DNA of 64,000 bases from Dyella jiangningensis. Lineage in GTDB: Bacteria > Pseudomonadota > Gammaproteobacteria > Xanthomonadales > Rhodanobacteraceae. The notes under the pieces were generated by a model. It was given only the letters and a program-made list of their open reading frames with translations. It was not told the DNA's origin and made no database searches. The first letter of the stretch is position 1. Each line of letters starts with the position of its first letter. The stretch lies in contig NZ_NFZS01000001.1 of the NCBI RefSeq assembly GCF_003264855.1, positions 2,046,001 through 2,110,000 on the forward strand. Direction: 5' to 3'. Positions 30,645 through 46,506 of the stretch are shown here, one piece after another. The translations under genes and the position numbers were made by a program.

Positions 30645-31137
30645 TTACTGCGGCGTGTAACTCCAGACCTTCGCTTCGCTCGCGACGCTGAGGATGCGGC
30701 CGTTGCGACGGATCAGGTGATCGGTGGTGCGATCACGTCCAATCGTCATGTCGCCCAGTTTCGCGGTCGATACCGACTGCGTCGGCGTGCTTGCGATCGG
30801 GCGACAGTTCGATGGCCTTGATCTCGTAGTCGATCTTGAGTGCCAACCGGCCGCCGGTGGCCACGCTGAGCTGCTGCATGGTCGCGATGGATCGCTTGAT
30901 GCGCTGGCATTGGGCGGCCTGGTCGAAATGTTCTTCGGTGTCGTCCTGGCGCGAGGTCTCGCTGCCTGCGTAGTCGTCGCTCATGCGCGCGCACAGGAAC
31001 TCGCTGTCGAACCGGCGCATGGCGTCGATGTCGGCTTCGTAGGCGGCACGGATGTCCGCCTCGGTCATGCGGCGGCTGTGGTCGAAGTACCACCATGCGA
31101 GGCCGGCGAGGATCGCCAGCAGGATCAGCTTCTTCAT
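30645..31137 (-). pseudogene. Small membrane-anchored protein of unknown function, frameshifted near its 3' end
   Basis: The ATG at 31137 follows GGAGGGG. The protein starts MKKLILLAILAGLAWWYFD (membrane anchor), then a soluble part (MTEADIRAAYEADIDAMRR...LALKIDYEIKAIELSPDRKHADAV). In this frame it ends abruptly at 30733 after GIDRETGRHDDWT. Dropping one G of the doublet at 30773-30774 instead reads ADAVVSTAKLGDMTIGRDR and runs on to a stop at 30645 with a plausible conserved-looking tail (LIRRNGRILSVASEAKVW). The intact length would be 163 aa. Either a real mutation or a sequencing error. No family recognised. Confidence 0.6.
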
Positions 31138-31232
31138 TGTCCCCTCCCTGTGATGGACCGGCCTGGGCCGGCCGGTCGTGCCTGCGTCCATGGCGCAAGT
31201 TTTTGCGACTATGCATCACGGGGAGGCGACTG

Positions 31233-38366: not shown

Positions 38367-39770
38367 TCAGCCGGTTGCGGGCGGCTTCGGAAAGGTCAAG
38401 GTGAAGCGGGTGACGCCTTGTCGTTCGCTCTTCGCCACGACGTCGCCGCCGTGCAGCTCCATGATGCTCTTGACGATGGAAAGGCCCAGCCCGGTGGAAT
38501 GGGCCGAGTCGCTGCGCGAGCGGTCCACGCGGTAGAAGCGATCGAACAGGTGCGCCATATGTTCGGGCGGGATGCCGGCGCCGGGGTTCTCCACGCTGAC
38601 CTCCACGCCGCGCTCCGTATCCAGGGCGCGCATCTCGATCGTGCCGCCAGCCGGCGTGTAGCGCAGCGCGTTGGACAGCAGGTTGCTGACCGCGCGGCGG
38701 AACAGCTCGCGGTCGGCGTGGACGCTGGCATGCGCTGTCACGCGTACGGCGACACCGGCGTCGGACGCCAGTCCTTCGAAGTAGTCGGCGATGCGTTGCA
38801 GTTCTTCGCCCGCTTCGATCATCACGCGTTGCAGCGCGAACTGCGGGCTGTCGGCGCGCGCGAGGAACAGCACGCTTTCGATGGTTCGGCTGACGCGGTC
38901 GCATTCCTCGATGTTGGATCCCAGCAGCAACTGGTATTCCTCCACGCTGCGTGGGCGGGTGAGGGCGACCTCGTTCGCGCCGCGCAGGTTGCCGATCGGC
39001 GTGCGCAGATCGTGGGCGAGATCCACGGTGAATTGCCACACTCGCGCGAAGCCATCCTCGATGCGGCCCAGCATGTCGTTGAGCGCGATGCTGAGCGTCT
39101 GCAGTTCGGCGGGCACATCGTCGGCCGGCATCCGCGTGCTCAGGTGATGCGCGGTCACCGCCGAGGCACTGGCAGCCATGGCGCGCAACGGCCGCAGCGC
39201 ACGCCGCACCAGCAGGTAGCTGAGCAATACGGCGACCAGCATGCCGGCAGCCAACGCCAGGATGGTGTCGCGCCGATAGCGTGAGAGCAGCAGCGCTCGG
39301 TCGGCCAGCGAGCGCGCCACCACGATGGTCACGGTCGAACCATCCCCGGGCTTGCCGATGGCAGAAACGCCGCGAATCTCGTGATCGTCGGCATCGCGCC
39401 AGGACTGGACGTCGGCCGCGACGATGCGCCGCTCCGACGGCACCATGGCTTGGACGGTCATGGGAAGACGGGACGGGTTGCGCTCCACCAACACATGGCC
39501 CGCTTCGTCCACGATGCGCAGCGCATTGTTCGTATCGCCCAGCACGCCGATGATCAGGCGATACTGGTGCGCGGCGACGTCGGCAGGGGAATCGAGCTCC
39601 GCCACGAAGCGGCGCAGGTGCCGCGTCGCCAGCACGAGGTTGGTGTCGTCCTGCTCGTGGATGCGCCGCGCCGCGGCTTCGAACAGCAGGAAGCCTACCG
39701 CGCTGAAACACGCCACCGTGATCACTACGAAAGTGATGGCCAGGCGGGCGCTGAGCGACAGTCGTGCCAT
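38367..39770 (-). CDS. Heavy-metal-type sensor histidine kinase (CusS-like)
   Basis: 467 residues. Membrane segments at about 10-30 and 160-182 flank a periplasmic sensor. A HAMP domain (about 183-235) and a HisKA dimerisation domain follow, with the phosphorylated His in LAHDLRTPIGNL. The ATPase has the N box NLLSNALRYTP, the G1 box NPGAGIPPEHM and the G2 box STGLGLSIVKSI. The architecture fits the heavy-metal sensor kinase group. ATGA overlap with the response regulator stop. It ends 8 bp from the HAD-IB gene. Confidence 0.92.
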   Translation of the reverse strand: MARLSLSARLAITFVVITVACFSAVGFLLFEAAARRIHEQDDTNLVLATRHLRRFVAELDSPADVAAHQYRLIIGVLGDTNNALRIVDEAGHVLVERNPSRLPMTVQAMVPSERRIVAADVQSWRDADDHEIRGVSAIGKPGDGSTVTIVVARSLADRALLLSRYRRDTILALAAGMLVAVLLSYLLVRRALRPLRAMAASASAVTAHHLSTRMPADDVPAELQTLSIALNDMLGRIEDGFARVWQFTVDLAHDLRTPIGNLRGANEVALTRPRSVEEYQLLLGSNIEECDRVSRTIESVLFLARADSPQFALQRVMIEAGEELQRIADYFEGLASDAGVAVRVTAHASVHADRELFRRAVSNLLSNALRYTPAGGTIEMRALDTERGVEVSVENPGAGIPPEHMAHLFDRFYRVDRSRSDSAHSTGLGLSIVKSIMELHGGDVVAKSERQGVTRFTLTFPKPPATG

Positions 39771-40450
39771 CAGTTGGCCTCGCGCGCTTCGTCGAGCACG
39801 TAGCCCATGCCCCGCACGGTGTGGATCAGCTTGACCTCGTGGCCGTCGTCGATCTTGACGCGCAGCCGGCGGATGGCCACTTCGACCACATTGGTATCGC
39901 TGTCGAAGTTCATGTCCCACACGTAGGAAGCAATCTGCGTGCGGCTCAATACCTCTCCGCGGCGCCGTGCCAGCAACTGCAACAGCGAGAATTCCCGTGG
40001 GGTGAGATCGATGCGCTGACCGGCGCGTCGAACGCGTCGACGTACGGCGTCAATTTCCAGATCGCCGATATGCATGTGCTCGATGTCGCGCGGCGGCCCG
40101 CGGCGGAGCAGGGTGCGGATGCGGGCCAGCAGTTCGACGAAGGCGAACGGTTTCACCAGGTAGTCGTCGCCGCCCAGCTCCAGCCCCTTCACGCGCTCTT
40201 CCAGCTCGTCCATCGCGGTGAGCAGCAGTACCGGCGTGTCCTTTCTGGCGCGCAGCCGGGTCAGCACGGCCCAGCCGTCGATACCCGGCAGCATCACGTC
40301 CAGCACGATGAGGTCGTAATCGTCCTCAAGCGCCAGGTGCAGGCCGTCGATGCCATTGAGCGCGACATCCACGGTGAAGCCGGACTCCTCGAGCCCTTTC
40401 TTGAGGTACTCACCGGCTTTCTTTTCGTCTTCGATGACAAGCAGACGCAT
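39770..40450 (-). CDS. OmpR-family response regulator (CusR/CopR-like)
   Basis: 226 residues. Receiver: [15 protein letters not shown] with the acidic pair, phosphoacceptor in [14 protein letters not shown], Lys in [10 protein letters not shown]. The winged-helix DNA-binding domain (about 130-222) carries [21 protein letters not shown] and [15 protein letters not shown]. Belongs to the heavy-metal-response subgroup. Transcribed away from the RND operon with 150 bp between starts, and probably activates it. The signal (metal, detergent or other toxicant) is unknown. Confidence 0.93.
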
Positions 40451-40600: not shown

Positions 40601-43600
40601 ATGTGGATCGTCCGTCTGGCGCTGCGGCGCCCCTATACCTTCATCGTGCTGGCCCTGCTGCTGGTCTTCATCGGGCCGCTCGCGCTGCTGCGCACGCCGA
40701 CCGACATCTTTCCGAACATCGACATTCCGGTGGTCAGCATCGTGTGGTCGTACAACGGCTTCTCGGCCGAGGACATGGCGAAGCGGATCACGTCGAACTA
40801 CGAGCGCGCGCTCACGTCCGACGTCGACGACATCGAGCACATCGAGTCGCAGTCGCTGAACGGCGTGGCCGTAATCAAGGTGTATTTCCATCCCGGCGCG
40901 GATATCAACCGCGCCATCGCCGAAGCGTCGTCCAACGCGCAATCGATCCTGCGTGTGCTGCCGCCAGGGACGCTGCCGCCGCTGGTCATTTCGTACAACG
41001 CCTCGACAGTGCCGATCCTTCAACTGGCACTGTCGAGCGACACGCTCGCCGAACAGCAGCTGTACGACCTCGGCAACAGCTTCATCCGTACGCAGCTGGC
41101 CACGGTACAGGGCGCGGCGATTCCGTTGCCGTTCGGCGGCAAGGTGCGCCAGGTGATGGTGGACCTGAACGCGCAGGCCATGCAGGCACACGGTCTGTCG
41201 CCGCTGGACGTGGTGAATGCGGTGAACGCGCAGAACCTGATCCTGCCCGGAGGCACCGCCAAGATCGGCGCGCTCGAATACAACGTCAATCTCAACGGCA
41301 GCCCGTCCAGCGTGGATGAGCTGAATCTTCTTCCGGTGAAATCGACACCTGGCGGCGTGGTGTACCTGCGCGACGTGGCCCAGGTGCGCGACGGCTTTGC
41401 CCCGCAGACTAATATCGTGCGCGTCGACGGCACGCGGTCGGCGCTGCTGCAGGTGGAGAAGAGCGGCGATGCTTCGACGCTGGACATCATCGGCCAGGTA
41501 AAGGCCATGCTGCCCCATATCGTCGCCGGCCTGCCCAAGGCGCTGGCGGTGAAGCCGGTGTCCGACCAGTCGGTGTTCGTCAGCTCCGCGGTCGACGGCG
41601 TGATTCGCGAAGGCGCTGATCGCCGCCGCGCTGACCGCGCTGATGATCCTGCTGTTTCTCGGCAGCTGGCGCTCGACGCTGATCATCGCGATCTCGATTC
41701 CGCTGTCGGTGATGAGTTCGCTGATCGCGCTGTCCGCGCTGGGGCAGACCATCAACATCATGACGCTGGGCGGATTGGCGCTGGCAGTGGGCATCCTGGT
41801 GGATGACGCCACGGTGGCCATCGAGGCGATCAGCCATCACCGCGACATGGGCAAGCCGCTGATGGACGCGATCATCGATGCGTCATCGCAGATCGCCTTG
41901 CCCACGCTGGTGTCGACGCTGTCGATCTGCATCGTGTTCGTGCCGATGTTCCTGCTGACGGGCGTGGCGCGCTACCTGTTCGTACCCCTGGCCGAGGCCG
42001 TAGTGTTCGCGATGCTGGCGTCATATTTCCTGTCCCGCACGCTGATCCCAACGCTGGCGATGTACCTGCTGCGCGGCGAGCGCGCGACGACCGACACTCA
42101 TGGTCGCTGGGAAGTACTGCGCCGGTTCCAGCAGCGCTTCGAGCGGGGTTTCGAGCGATTCCATGGGCATTACCAGGCGGTGCTGTCTGCTGCCATCGCC
42201 AGTCCGCGGCGCGTGGCGCTCGGTTTCGCGGTGGTCTGCGGTATCTCGTTGCTGCTGGTTCCCGTACTGGGCAGGGATTTCTTTCCCACTTCCGATACCG
42301 GCGAGATCCGCCTGCACATGCGTGTTCGTACCGGTACACGCATCGAGCAGACCGCGCGGGTGGTGGACCTGGTGGAGCAGCGTATCCGCACGGTGATTCC
42401 GCCGTCGACGTTGGGCGGGATCCTCGACAACATCGGCCTGCCGGTGAGCGGCATCAACATCACCTACGACTCGTCATTGCCGGTGGGCTCGGCCGATGCC
42501 GACATCCTGGTGACGCTGAAGCCCGGTCATGGCCCAACGGCCGCATACGTCGAGACGCTGCGCGAGCAGTTGAATCGCGATTTCCCCGGCGTGACGTTTG
42601 CCTTCCTGCCGGCCGACATCATCAGCCAGACACTGGATTTCGGCCTGCCGTCGCCGATCGACGTGCAGATCGTGGGCAAGGACCAGGTCGCCAATCGGCA
42701 GATCGCCGATCAGCTGCTGGCATCGTTCCGCCATGTGCAGGGCCTGGTTGATCCGCGTATCCAGCAGCCGGGCGACGCGCCGTCGATCAACATCAACGTG
42801 GATCGCACCAAGGCCATCCAGGCCGGCTTCCAGCAACGCGTGATTGCCCAGAACCTGCTGATCGCCCTGTCGGGCAGTTCGCAGACCTCGCCGAATTTCT
42901 GGCTCAACCCGATCAATGGCGTGAGCTATCCGTTGGCCACGGAAGCACCGCAGTACACCATCGACTCGCTGCAGTCGCTGGGCAATATCCCGCTGACCAA
43001 CGGCAACCAGCAGGGCGTGGCAGGGAAGGGCGCGACGGTGCCGATCCTCGCATCGCTGAGCACGCTCTCGCGCGGATCGCAGGACGCGGTGGTATCGCAC
43101 TACAACGTGCAGCCGGTGATCGACGTGTTCGCCGGTGTGCAGGGTCGCGATCTGGGCGCGGTGGCTGCCGACGTCGAGACGCTGGTCGCGCAGGCGCGTG
43201 CGCATCTGCCGCCGGGTTCGAGCCTGGTCGTGCGCGGCGAGGTGCAGACCATGCAGTCGTCGTTCCAGGGCCTGCTGCTTGGCCTCGCCTTCGCCGTGCT
43301 GCTGGTGTATGCGCTGATGGTGGTGAACTTCCAGTCGTGGCTGGACCCGCTGGTGATCATCAGCGGCTTGCCGGGCGCCATCTCCGGCATGGCAGGGGTG
43401 TTGTTCGTCACGCGCACCACCATCAGCGTGCCTGCGTTGACCGGAGCCATCATGTGCATTGGCATCGCCACTGCCAACAGCATTCTGGTGGTGAGCTTTG
43501 CGCGCGACCGCATCAACGAAGGCGCCACGCCCTTGCAGGCTGCCTTCGACGCCGGCAGCACCCGCTTCCGTCCGGTATTGATGACGGCCTTGGCCATGCT

Positions 43601-43811
43601 GATCGGCATGTTGCCGATGGCGCTGGGCCTCGGCGATGGCGGCGAGCAGAACGCGCCGCTCGGCCGCGCGGTCATCGGTGGCCTATTGTTCGGCACGGTT
43701 GCCACCCTGGTCTTCGTTCCCGTCGTGTTTGCCGCCGTGCATGCCTGGCTGCGCCGCCGCGCCGGCCAAACCCTGCAGGCGTTGCCCAATCCGACCCCAT
43801 CGACTCCGTGA
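40601..43811 (+). pseudogene. RND efflux permease, disrupted by a one-base frameshift
   Basis: Proton-driven inner-membrane pump (AcrB/MdtB-like). The first part runs from ATG 40601 (MWIVRLALRRPYTFIVLAL; TPTDIFPNIDIPVVSIVW) to SSAVDGVIRE. Then the frame changes: the rest (LIAAALTALMILLFLGSW, membrane segments, to FVPVVFAAVHAWLRRRAG) is one base out, open from 41643. Removing one G of 41612-41613 gives RE-ALIAAALTALM and an intact 1069-residue protein, the normal RND length. As written the product stops at 41806. It heads a permease-adaptor-outer-membrane operon. Real lesion or sequencing error cannot be decided here. Confidence 0.88.
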
Positions 43812-43823
43812 GGGAGAATTCCC

Positions 43824-44984
43824 ATGTCCATGCTCGTTCCCGTGAAGCCTGCAGCTGCACCCAGGCGCCTGCTGATCGTCTCGGCCGTGGTGGCGGCGCT
43901 GGCCTTGTCGGCAGGCGGCATTCCGCGCCTCGCCGCGCACGGCGTGGTCGCCCGTCAGACCGATGCGCTTGCCGTACCCACCGTCGCCGTGGTGACGCCG
44001 ACCAAGGCGCCGGCCCAGCAGGTGCTGGTGCTGCCTGGTGACGTTGAAGCTTTCCAGGAGGCCAACATCTATGCGCGTACCAGCGGCTACCTGCATCGCT
44101 GGTACAGCGACATCGGCACGCACGTGAAGCGCGGCGACCTGCTCGCCGACATCGATGCGCCCGAACTCGACGCCGAACTCACGCAAGCGCAGTCGGACGC
44201 GGCGACGGCCTTGGCCAACTACGACATCGCCAAGGTCACTGCCGCCCGCTGGCAGCAGATGCTCAAGGACGATGCCGTCTCCCGCCAGTCCAGCGAGGAG
44301 AACGCGAGCACGATGAAAGCCAAGCAGGCGATGCTCGCGGCGGCGCAGGCGAATGTCAGCCGCCTTGCGCAGCTGCAGTCGTTCGAGAAGGTGGTGGCGC
44401 CGTTCGATGGCGTGGTCACGGTGCGGAACATCGACGTGGGTGCCTTGATCGATGCAGGCAACGGCGGCACGCCTGCCGCCTTGTTCCGCCTGGCCGAGAC
44501 TGACCGTCTGCGCGTCTTCGTCGACGTGCCGCAGGACCAGGCGGCTGATGTTGTCGCTGGAGCCAAGGCGACGCTGGCGCTGCCGCAGTATCCGGGCCGC
44601 AGCTTCGCCGGAACGGTGGCGCGCACATCGGGCGCGATCGACGCGAACAGCCGTACGCTGCGCGTCGAGGTGGATATGGATAATCCCGATGGTGCGGTGT
44701 TGCCGGGCGCATACGCACAGGTGAGCCTGCCGCTGTCCGCCGCGCAGCCGGGCCTGTCGCTGCCGGCGAATGCGCTGTTGTTCCGACCGGCGGGCGTGCA
44801 GGTGGCCGTGGTGGATGCGAAGGGCACGGTGCAGCTGCGCACCGTCACGCTGGGTCGCGATTTCGGTGCGCGTGTGGAGATCCATGCCGGGCTGCACGGC
44901 GACGAGCGCGTGATCGTGAATCCGGGCGACGCCATCACGGCGGGCCAAGCGGTGCGCATCAATGCGCAGCCGGCCAACGCGTGA
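43824..44984 (+). CDS. RND efflux periplasmic adaptor (membrane fusion protein)
   Basis: 386 residues. An N-terminal membrane anchor (LLIVSAVVAALALSAGGIP) leads into a barrel-sandwich lipoyl half (VEAFQEANIYARTSGYLHRWYSDIGTHVKRGDLLADID), a helical hairpin (about 110-165, TQAQSDAATALANYD to ANVSRLAQLQ), then the second lipoyl half (FEKVVAPFDGVVTVRNIDVGALID) and beta-barrel. It joins the permease to the outer-membrane channel. The RBS GGGAG precedes ATG, 12 bp after the permease stop. Confidence 0.93.
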   Translation: MSMLVPVKPAAAPRRLLIVSAVVAALALSAGGIPRLAAHGVVARQTDALAVPTVAVVTPTKAPAQQVLVLPGDVEAFQEANIYARTSGYLHRWYSDIGTHVKRGDLLADIDAPELDAELTQAQSDAATALANYDIAKVTAARWQQMLKDDAVSRQSSEENASTMKAKQAMLAAAQANVSRLAQLQSFEKVVAPFDGVVTVRNIDVGALIDAGNGGTPAALFRLAETDRLRVFVDVPQDQAADVVAGAKATLALPQYPGRSFAGTVARTSGAIDANSRTLRVEVDMDNPDGAVLPGAYAQVSLPLSAAQPGLSLPANALLFRPAGVQVAVVDAKGTVQLRTVTLGRDFGARVEIHAGLHGDERVIVNPGDAITAGQAVRINAQPANA

Positions 44985-45000
44985 GAAAGGGGGGCCGTCC

Positions 45001-46506
45001 ATGAATCGCCAAACGACATCTCTCTTGCGTACGGCCGCGGTGGCGACGCTGCTCGGTGTGATGCTGGCCGGGTGTTCTCCGGGGCCGGCCTATATACGTC
45101 CAACCGTGACGGTTCCCGATCAGTTCAAGGAGGCTTCGCGAACAGCGCCGGGCTGGCAACCGGCACATCCTCGCGACGATGCCGATCGCGGCGCGTGGTG
45201 GACCTTGTTCGGCGACGCCACGCTGGACGATCTGGAAGCCAAGGTCGACGTTGGCAACCAGACCATTGCCAAGAGCGTCGCGAGTCTCGCGCAGGCCAAG
45301 GCGATGGTCGGCACCGCGCGCTCGTCCTACTTTCCCACGGTGACCGCGGGCGTCAGTGCCGATCGCGCGCATACCTCGCAGAACGTGGTGGGCCGTTCGC
45401 TGGCCGGCAAGACCGTGTCCGATTTCAATGCGGGACTCACCGTCTCATGGGAGCCGGACCTGTTCGGCCGCATCGGCTACCAGGTGAAGGCCGCGCAGGC
45501 GCGCTATCAGGCCAGCGAGGCCGATCTGGCTTCGGTGCGCCTGGCCATGCAGGCGGAACTGGCCATCGACTACATCGACCTGCGCGAACTCGATGCCGAG
45601 GCCGCCCTGTTGCAGCAGACCGTGGCGGACTATGCGCGGGCCCGGGCGCTGGTGAACACGCGCTACCAGGGAGGCATCGCCTCCGAATCGGACCTGCAGC
45701 AGGCCGAAACGCAGTGGCAGGCGGCGCAGGCGCAGTTGATCGACCTTGGCGAGAGCCGCGCGCAACACGAACACGCCATCGCCGTGCTGATCGGCGTGCC
45801 GCCGGCCCAGCTCAGCCTGCCGGTGAACACGCAGCCGCTGTCCTTGCCGTCGGTTCCGGCGGGCGTGCCGTCAATCTTGCTGCAGCGTCGCCCGGATATC
45901 GCCGCCGCCGAACGTCGCGTGGCAGCGGCAAACGCCGATGTGGGCGAAGCCACTTCCGCATTCTTTCCGGACCTCTTGCTGTCCGCCAGTGGCGGGCTGG
46001 AAGCCTCGAAGTTGGCTCAATTCGCCATGTTGCCCAGCCGCTTCTGGGCCATCGGTCCTGCACTGGTGGGCACGTTGTTCGATGGCGGACGCCGCAAGCA
46101 GGAACTCGCCGGGGCGAACGCAAGCCATGACGCCGCGGCTGCCGACTACCGGCAAACCGTGCTCACCGCGTTCCAGGACGTGGAAGACAACCTCGCCTCG
46201 CTCCGCGTGCTGGGCGATGAGTCAGCCACGCAACAGCATGCGGTCGACGCCGCTTCGCGCGCGGCGCAGCTTTCCCTGACGCGTTATCGGGACGGCGCCA
46301 CGGACTATCTCGAAGTGGTCTCGACCCAGAGCGTGAGCCTGACCCAGTCGCGCAACCTCGTGGAACTGTCGCGTCGTCGGCTGGAGGCCGATGTGCGGCT
46401 GATCAAGGCGCTGGGTGGGGGCTGGTCGGGGCTCGACGTGCCGCTGGGGTCTCACGATGTCGCTGCGCTAAACCTATCGCCGGCCAAAGGCATCGAAGCG
46501 CCGTAG
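45001..46506 (+). CDS. Outer-membrane efflux lipoprotein (NodT/OprM-type TolC channel)
   Basis: 501 residues. A lipoprotein signal with lipobox MLAGC gives acylated Cys25. Two OEP repeats (about 75-255 and 285-480) form the helical barrel: WWTLFGDATLDDL, YRASEADLASVRL-type helices, LLQRRPDIAAAERRVAAANADVG, and LTRYRDGATDYLEVVSTQ, all usual for the NodT family. The 16-bp spacing from the adaptor gene marks it as the third operon member. With the permease broken, the operon would lack its motor unless the frameshift is an artefact. Confidence 0.94.
   Translation: MNRQTTSLLRTAAVATLLGVMLAGCSPGPAYIRPTVTVPDQFKEASRTAPGWQPAHPRDDADRGAWWTLFGDATLDDLEAKVDVGNQTIAKSVASLAQAKAMVGTARSSYFPTVTAGVSADRAHTSQNVVGRSLAGKTVSDFNAGLTVSWEPDLFGRIGYQVKAAQARYQASEADLASVRLAMQAELAIDYIDLRELDAEAALLQQTVADYARARALVNTRYQGGIASESDLQQAETQWQAAQAQLIDLGESRAQHEHAIAVLIGVPPAQLSLPVNTQPLSLPSVPAGVPSILLQRRPDIAAAERRVAAANADVGEATSAFFPDLLLSASGGLEASKLAQFAMLPSRFWAIGPALVGTLFDGGRRKQELAGANASHDAAAADYRQTVLTAFQDVEDNLASLRVLGDESATQQHAVDAASRAAQLSLTRYRDGATDYLEVVSTQSVSLTQSRNLVELSRRRLEADVRLIKALGGGWSGLDVPLGSHDVAALNLSPAKGIEAP

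What the first reader, a model, noticed from the sequence alone, without database searches (positions are those of the whole stretch)
41605..41645. One-base frameshift inactivates the RND permease of an otherwise intact efflux operon
The permease frame from 40601 reads normally to VDGVIRE, then breaks; the remainder is one base out. Deleting one G of the doublet at 41612-41613 restores RE-ALIAAALTALM and a 1069-residue protein. Adaptor, outer-membrane lipoprotein and two-component genes are all intact. Possibilities are a recent loss-of-function, phase-like variation, programmed slippage or an assembly error.
Basis: partly seen in the sequence, partly recalled or inferred. Interest (0 to 1): 0.6.

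Follow-up and report, generated by a model that had tools for sequence, protein, structure and literature searches.

The report
Frameshifted efflux-pump gene, probably assembly artefact
A drug- or metal-pump gene in a soil bacterium reads as broken by one extra base, but the genome was pieced together from a mixed culture and its only enolase gene is broken in the same way, so this is most likely an assembly error or else an ordinary recent mutation.

Summary
The frame break is real in the sequence. The RND permease gene (40601-43811, +) reads in one frame to ...VDGVIREG and continues one base out of frame, with one net extra nucleotide at about 41612-41616 compared with every orthologue and paralogue aligned. 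Both closest orthologues are intact at 1069 residues, and no other homologue listed among 74 family genomes is split there. The window is scaffold 1 of Dyella jiangningensis FCAV SCS01 (exact match of total and longest-scaffold length), a metaSPAdes assembly of Illumina reads from a mixed consortium. In 1.19 Mb of this scaffold, five conserved genes carry such small indels. One is the only enolase, cut by a stop before its active-site lysine; others are cyoB and hutU. The assembly therefore contains at least one almost certainly false frameshift, and artefact is the best explanation here (about 0.7). A genuine recent inactivation is the main rival (about 0.27): both halves remain under purifying selection, so any real lesion is young. 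Programmed slippage, phase variation and a functional split gene are not supported. Low interest.

The parts
40601..41806 (+). First piece of the RND permease gene: TM1 and first periplasmic loop in frame to about 41611-41614, then 65 out-of-frame residues to a stop at 41804-41806
   Evidence: Pfam ACR_tran 1-335; 94.7% protein identity to G006 over residues 1-338
41612..41616 (+). Site of the net +1 nucleotide relative to all aligned homologues (exact base ambiguous in the alignment)
   Evidence: net +1 also against G017 and G006 by gene length
41643..43811 (+). Second piece of the RND permease gene (TM2-TM12), open one base out of frame; first ATG of that frame at 41643, without a recognisable ribosome-binding site
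   Evidence: Pfam ACR_tran 348-1021
43824..44984 (+). Periplasmic adaptor (RND_mfp), intact
44962..46506 (+). Outer-membrane factor (NodT type), intact; true start probably at the ATG at 45001
39770..40450 (-). Heavy-metal-type (CusR/CopR-like) response regulator, divergent from the pump operon, intact
38367..39770 (-). Heavy-metal-type (CusS/CopS-like) sensor histidine kinase, intact

Best explanation
The break is most likely a small indel error in a metagenome-assembled consensus. The window is scaffold 1 of Dyella jiangningensis FCAV SCS01, assembled by metaSPAdes from Illumina 2x100 reads of a mixed lignocellulose-degrading culture. The cell probably carries an ordinary, full-length RND permease of about 1069 residues, as its relatives do. 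Shown: the break, its absence in relatives, the origin of the genome, and other frameshifts in it that include the sole enolase gene. Inferred: that this break shares their cause, probably a wrong path or join in the assembly graph, since at roughly 780-fold nominal depth plain base-calling error is unlikely.
For: Identity of the genome: 7 contigs, 4,758,053 bases, longest 2,446,838 match the published FCAV SCS01 assembly exactly (PMC6082245). The enolase gene at C1:1946393-1947705 is split with an in-frame TGA and no second enolase is found in the genome, while the other 19 genus genomes all have it intact. The stop precedes the QIKTGS segment holding the active-site lysine (lysine role from general knowledge). 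cyoB (98% identical on both sides) and hutU (96 and 93%) are frameshifted too, and a small gene at 30648-31146 in the window has a net -2. All breaks are outside homopolymers with well-conserved flanks. The RND break is unique among the listed homologues. dN/dS is 0.06-0.09 in both halves, as for an intact gene.
Against: Reads were not available, so the site itself is untested. Short reads at such depth seldom give non-homopolymer indels. PGAP counts 54 pseudogenes in this genome, some of which will be real. Enolase shows that the assembly has at least one false indel, not that this one is false. The count of five in about 636 orthologues is not far above the three found in the 454-sequenced relative.
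Confidence: 0.7

Rival explanations
1. A genuine, recent one-base insertion inactivated the permease in this strain, or in part of the consortium population kept by weekly subculture. Two intact full-length paralogues elsewhere in the genome could make the loss tolerable.
For: The break is in the assembled consensus. Two intact paralogous RND permeases exist at C4:1129564-1132746 and C1:1749144-1752317. The extra base makes the first of three nearby GCGCTGA words (41613, 41628, 41637) identical to the others, as short template switching might. No sign of decay is expected if it is recent.
Against: The same assembly carries a comparable break in its sole enolase. Both halves are still under purifying selection and there is no second lesion.
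Confidence: 0.27
2. Programmed +1 ribosomal frameshifting joins the two frames.
For: The downstream frame is open and conserved.
Against: There is no stop or slippery heptamer at the site: the zero-frame codons CGC GAA GGC GCT GAT allow no good +1 re-pairing and the zero-frame stop is about 64 codons on. No relative has the shifted arrangement.
Confidence: 0.01
3. Phase variation by slippage in a repeat tract.
For: Three GCGCTGA words lie within 31 bases.
Against: No run of three or more identical bases at 41590-41650. The word spacings of 15 and 9 bases would give in-frame changes, not +1. No relative varies here.
Confidence: 0.01
4. A functional split permease, with TM1 plus the first periplasmic loop as one chain and TM2-TM12 as another started at ATG 41643.
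For: The break lies between the first periplasmic loop and TM2, and an in-frame ATG follows.
Against: No ribosome-binding site before 41643, a 65-residue out-of-frame tail on the first piece, no split homologue at this site elsewhere, and no comparable split RND permease known to me.
Confidence: 0.01

Closest known systems
Gene-fragmenting errors in assemblies (for example Kastor, PMC12007338, for long-read assemblies)
   Same: Single small indels split otherwise conserved genes, essential ones included, and mimic pseudogenes.
   Different: This is a short-read metagenome assembly, so the source of error would be graph path or join, not noisy reads.
HAE1/HME-type RND efflux permeases (Pfam ACR_tran; MdtB, CmeB, AcrB, CusA)
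   Same: Full-length Pfam match over the two pieces together; the intact orthologue matches MdtB, CmeB, CusA and AcrB over its length.
   Different: The intact orthologue scores far below NCBIfam cut-offs of the named subfamilies, so it is an unnamed subgroup common in Dyella and Burkholderiaceae.
CusRS/CopRS heavy-metal two-component systems
   Same: Both regulator and kinase exceed the cut-offs of the heavy-metal subfamily models.
   Different: The equivalog models for Cu/Ag are below cut-off, so the metal is not known.

Membership tests
RND permease (ACR_tran) | Match to PF00873 along the whole length | tested here: met
   Profile 1-335 and 348-1021 in two frames
RND permease (ACR_tran) | One continuous reading frame of about 1000-1100 residues | tested here: not met
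   Two frames in the window; the orthologues have one
Assembly or sequence error | Comparable breaks in genes the cell cannot lose | tested here: met
   Sole enolase split with TGA; cyoB and hutU also
Assembly or sequence error | Raw reads disagree with the consensus at the site | not testable with these tools
   No reads held
Pseudogene | Relaxed selection or further lesions after the break | tested here: not met
   dN/dS 0.064-0.089 in both halves, no second lesion; a very young lesion would look the same
Programmed frameshift gene | Conserved shifted arrangement and a recoding signal | tested here: not met
   No relative shares it; no signal in the sequence
Phase-variable gene | Homopolymer or short tandem repeat at the break | tested here: not met
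   No run of three or more bases at 41590-41650

The most novel reading that the evidence does not exclude
The break is real and the population in this consortium has recently lost, or is losing, one metal-regulated RND pump while keeping its regulators, adaptor and outer-membrane factor.
Probability: 0.27. Interest if true: 0.2.

Novelty: not a real feature. Interest (0 to 1): 0.07.

Why it matters
As biology it matters little. It is a useful warning: this species-representative genome, rated 99.99% complete, holds a consensus in which even enolase is broken, so pseudogene calls from it, and gene-loss claims built on them, need reads behind them.

Tried and rejected
Programmed +1 frameshift: no signal, not conserved. 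Phase variation: no tract. Split gene with internal start: no ribosome-binding site, no split relatives. Old pseudogene: selection intact in both halves. Shared lineage lesion: both nearest relatives are intact. A uniformly elevated indel rate: not shown. Five in G000 against three in G006 over about 610-640 orthologues, the five lying within 250 kb; the relative was sequenced by 454 at about 25-fold (PMC4022811) and two of its three breaks lie in short homopolymers, so it is no clean yardstick. Many other flags of the scan were over-long start choices or antisense open frames and were set aside after inspection. Promoter and terminator scan: nothing above chance.

Full report
Observation. The permease gene begins at 40601 and reads normally to VDGVIREG; the frame then runs out of register for 65 residues to a stop at 41804-41806. 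The rest of the gene is open in the next frame, to 43811. Pfam ACR_tran matches the first piece over profile positions 1-335 and the second over 348-1021, so this is one RND permease gene in two frames, not two genes. The break lies just before the second transmembrane helix.

Comparison with relatives. In the genus, the direct orthologues and the paralogues all lack one nucleotide that the window has at about 41612-41616, and the full-length copies examined have single open frames of about 1066 residues or more. The two closest orthologues are exactly 1069 residues. In a search of 147 family genomes with the intact orthologue, 74 had strong matches and no other copy was split at this place (one genome gave a partial match of a different kind).

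Where the window comes from. It is G000 contig 1, 2046001-2110000. The genome has 7 contigs, 4,758,053 bases and a longest contig of 2,446,838. These numbers equal those published for Dyella jiangningensis FCAV SCS01, recovered by metaSPAdes 3.10.1 from Illumina HiSeq 2x100 reads of a sugarcane-straw-degrading consortium (PMC6082245). From the read counts in that paper the nominal depth is about 780-fold (my arithmetic). The paper reports 54 pseudogenes. That metaSPAdes runs without SPAdes' mismatch correction step is my own knowledge and was not checked.

Is the assembly reliable at the single-base level? I compared 1.19 Mb of scaffold 1 (1.26-2.447 Mb) with the syntenic parts of D. jiangningensis SBZ3-12 (G006, CP007444), protein by protein in both directions. 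Among about 636 orthologues, five genes of the window's genome carry an interior small indel with conserved flanks: hutU near 1,837,002 (net -1), cyoB near 1,934,600 (+1), enolase near 1,947,559 (+2), a small gene near 2,076,786 (-2; window 30648-31146, minus strand) and the RND permease (+1). The enolase is the telling case: it is the only enolase found in the genome, the other 19 genus genomes have it intact, and its premature TGA removes the last 50 or so residues with the active-site lysine (role of the lysine from general knowledge). A cell without enolase is implausible, so at least this frameshift is almost certainly false.

Caution about rates. The relative G006 shows three frameshifts of its own over the same comparison. 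It was sequenced by 454 at about 25-fold (PMC4022811), an indel-prone method, so it is not a clean baseline. The five sites of G000 lie within 250 kb; with so few events this clustering is only suggestive.

Selection. Pairwise dN/dS against the two close relatives is 0.087 and 0.089 for the part before the break, and 0.064 and 0.088 for the part after. The downstream part is as constrained as the upstream part. If the lesion is real it is young.

Mechanisms that would make it interesting. There is no homopolymer of three or more bases at 41590-41650, and the three nearby GCGCTGA words are spaced by 15 and 9 bases, which would give in-frame changes: no basis for phase variation. There is no recoding signal and no conservation: no basis for programmed frameshifting. 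The first ATG of the second frame (41643) has no ribosome-binding site, and no split relative is known here: no basis for a functional split protein.

The operon. Order is permease, adaptor, NodT-type outer-membrane factor, with a divergent heavy-metal-type two-component pair; all but the permease are intact against relatives. Two full-length paralogous permeases exist elsewhere in the genome.

Verdict. Reads over the site would settle it.

Noticed in passing
window 30648-31146 (-), break near 30786: A small conserved gene (starting MKKLILLAILAGLAWWYFDHSRRMT) is also frameshifted, net -2 against both close relatives.
   Followed up: yes
G000:C1:1946393-1947705 (loci L166, L167): The only enolase gene of the genome is split by a small indel with an in-frame TGA, while all 19 other genus genomes have it intact.
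   Followed up: yes
G000:C1 near 1,934,600 and near 1,837,002: cyoB (quinol oxidase subunit I) and hutU (urocanase) are frameshifted in the same assembly.
   Followed up: partly
P0003 (intact orthologue, L046:1960-5166) and Burkholderiaceae homologues L052-L118: In this RND subgroup the TM10 motif reads GIATANSILV where MdtB has GIVKKNAI, so the lysine of the proton relay (AcrB Lys940) appears to be replaced, while the Asp-Asp pair is kept. Coupling chemistry of this subgroup may differ.
   Followed up: partly
G006 = CP007444 (D. jiangningensis SBZ3-12), 1.85-3.12 Mb: The complete genome of the close relative, sequenced by 454, has at least three frameshifted genes of its own, two of them at short homopolymers.
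   Followed up: partly
window 41613, 41628, 41637: Three copies of GCGCTGA lie within 31 bases; the extra base makes the first identical to the others. Could reflect a wrong overlap join or template switching.
   Followed up: no
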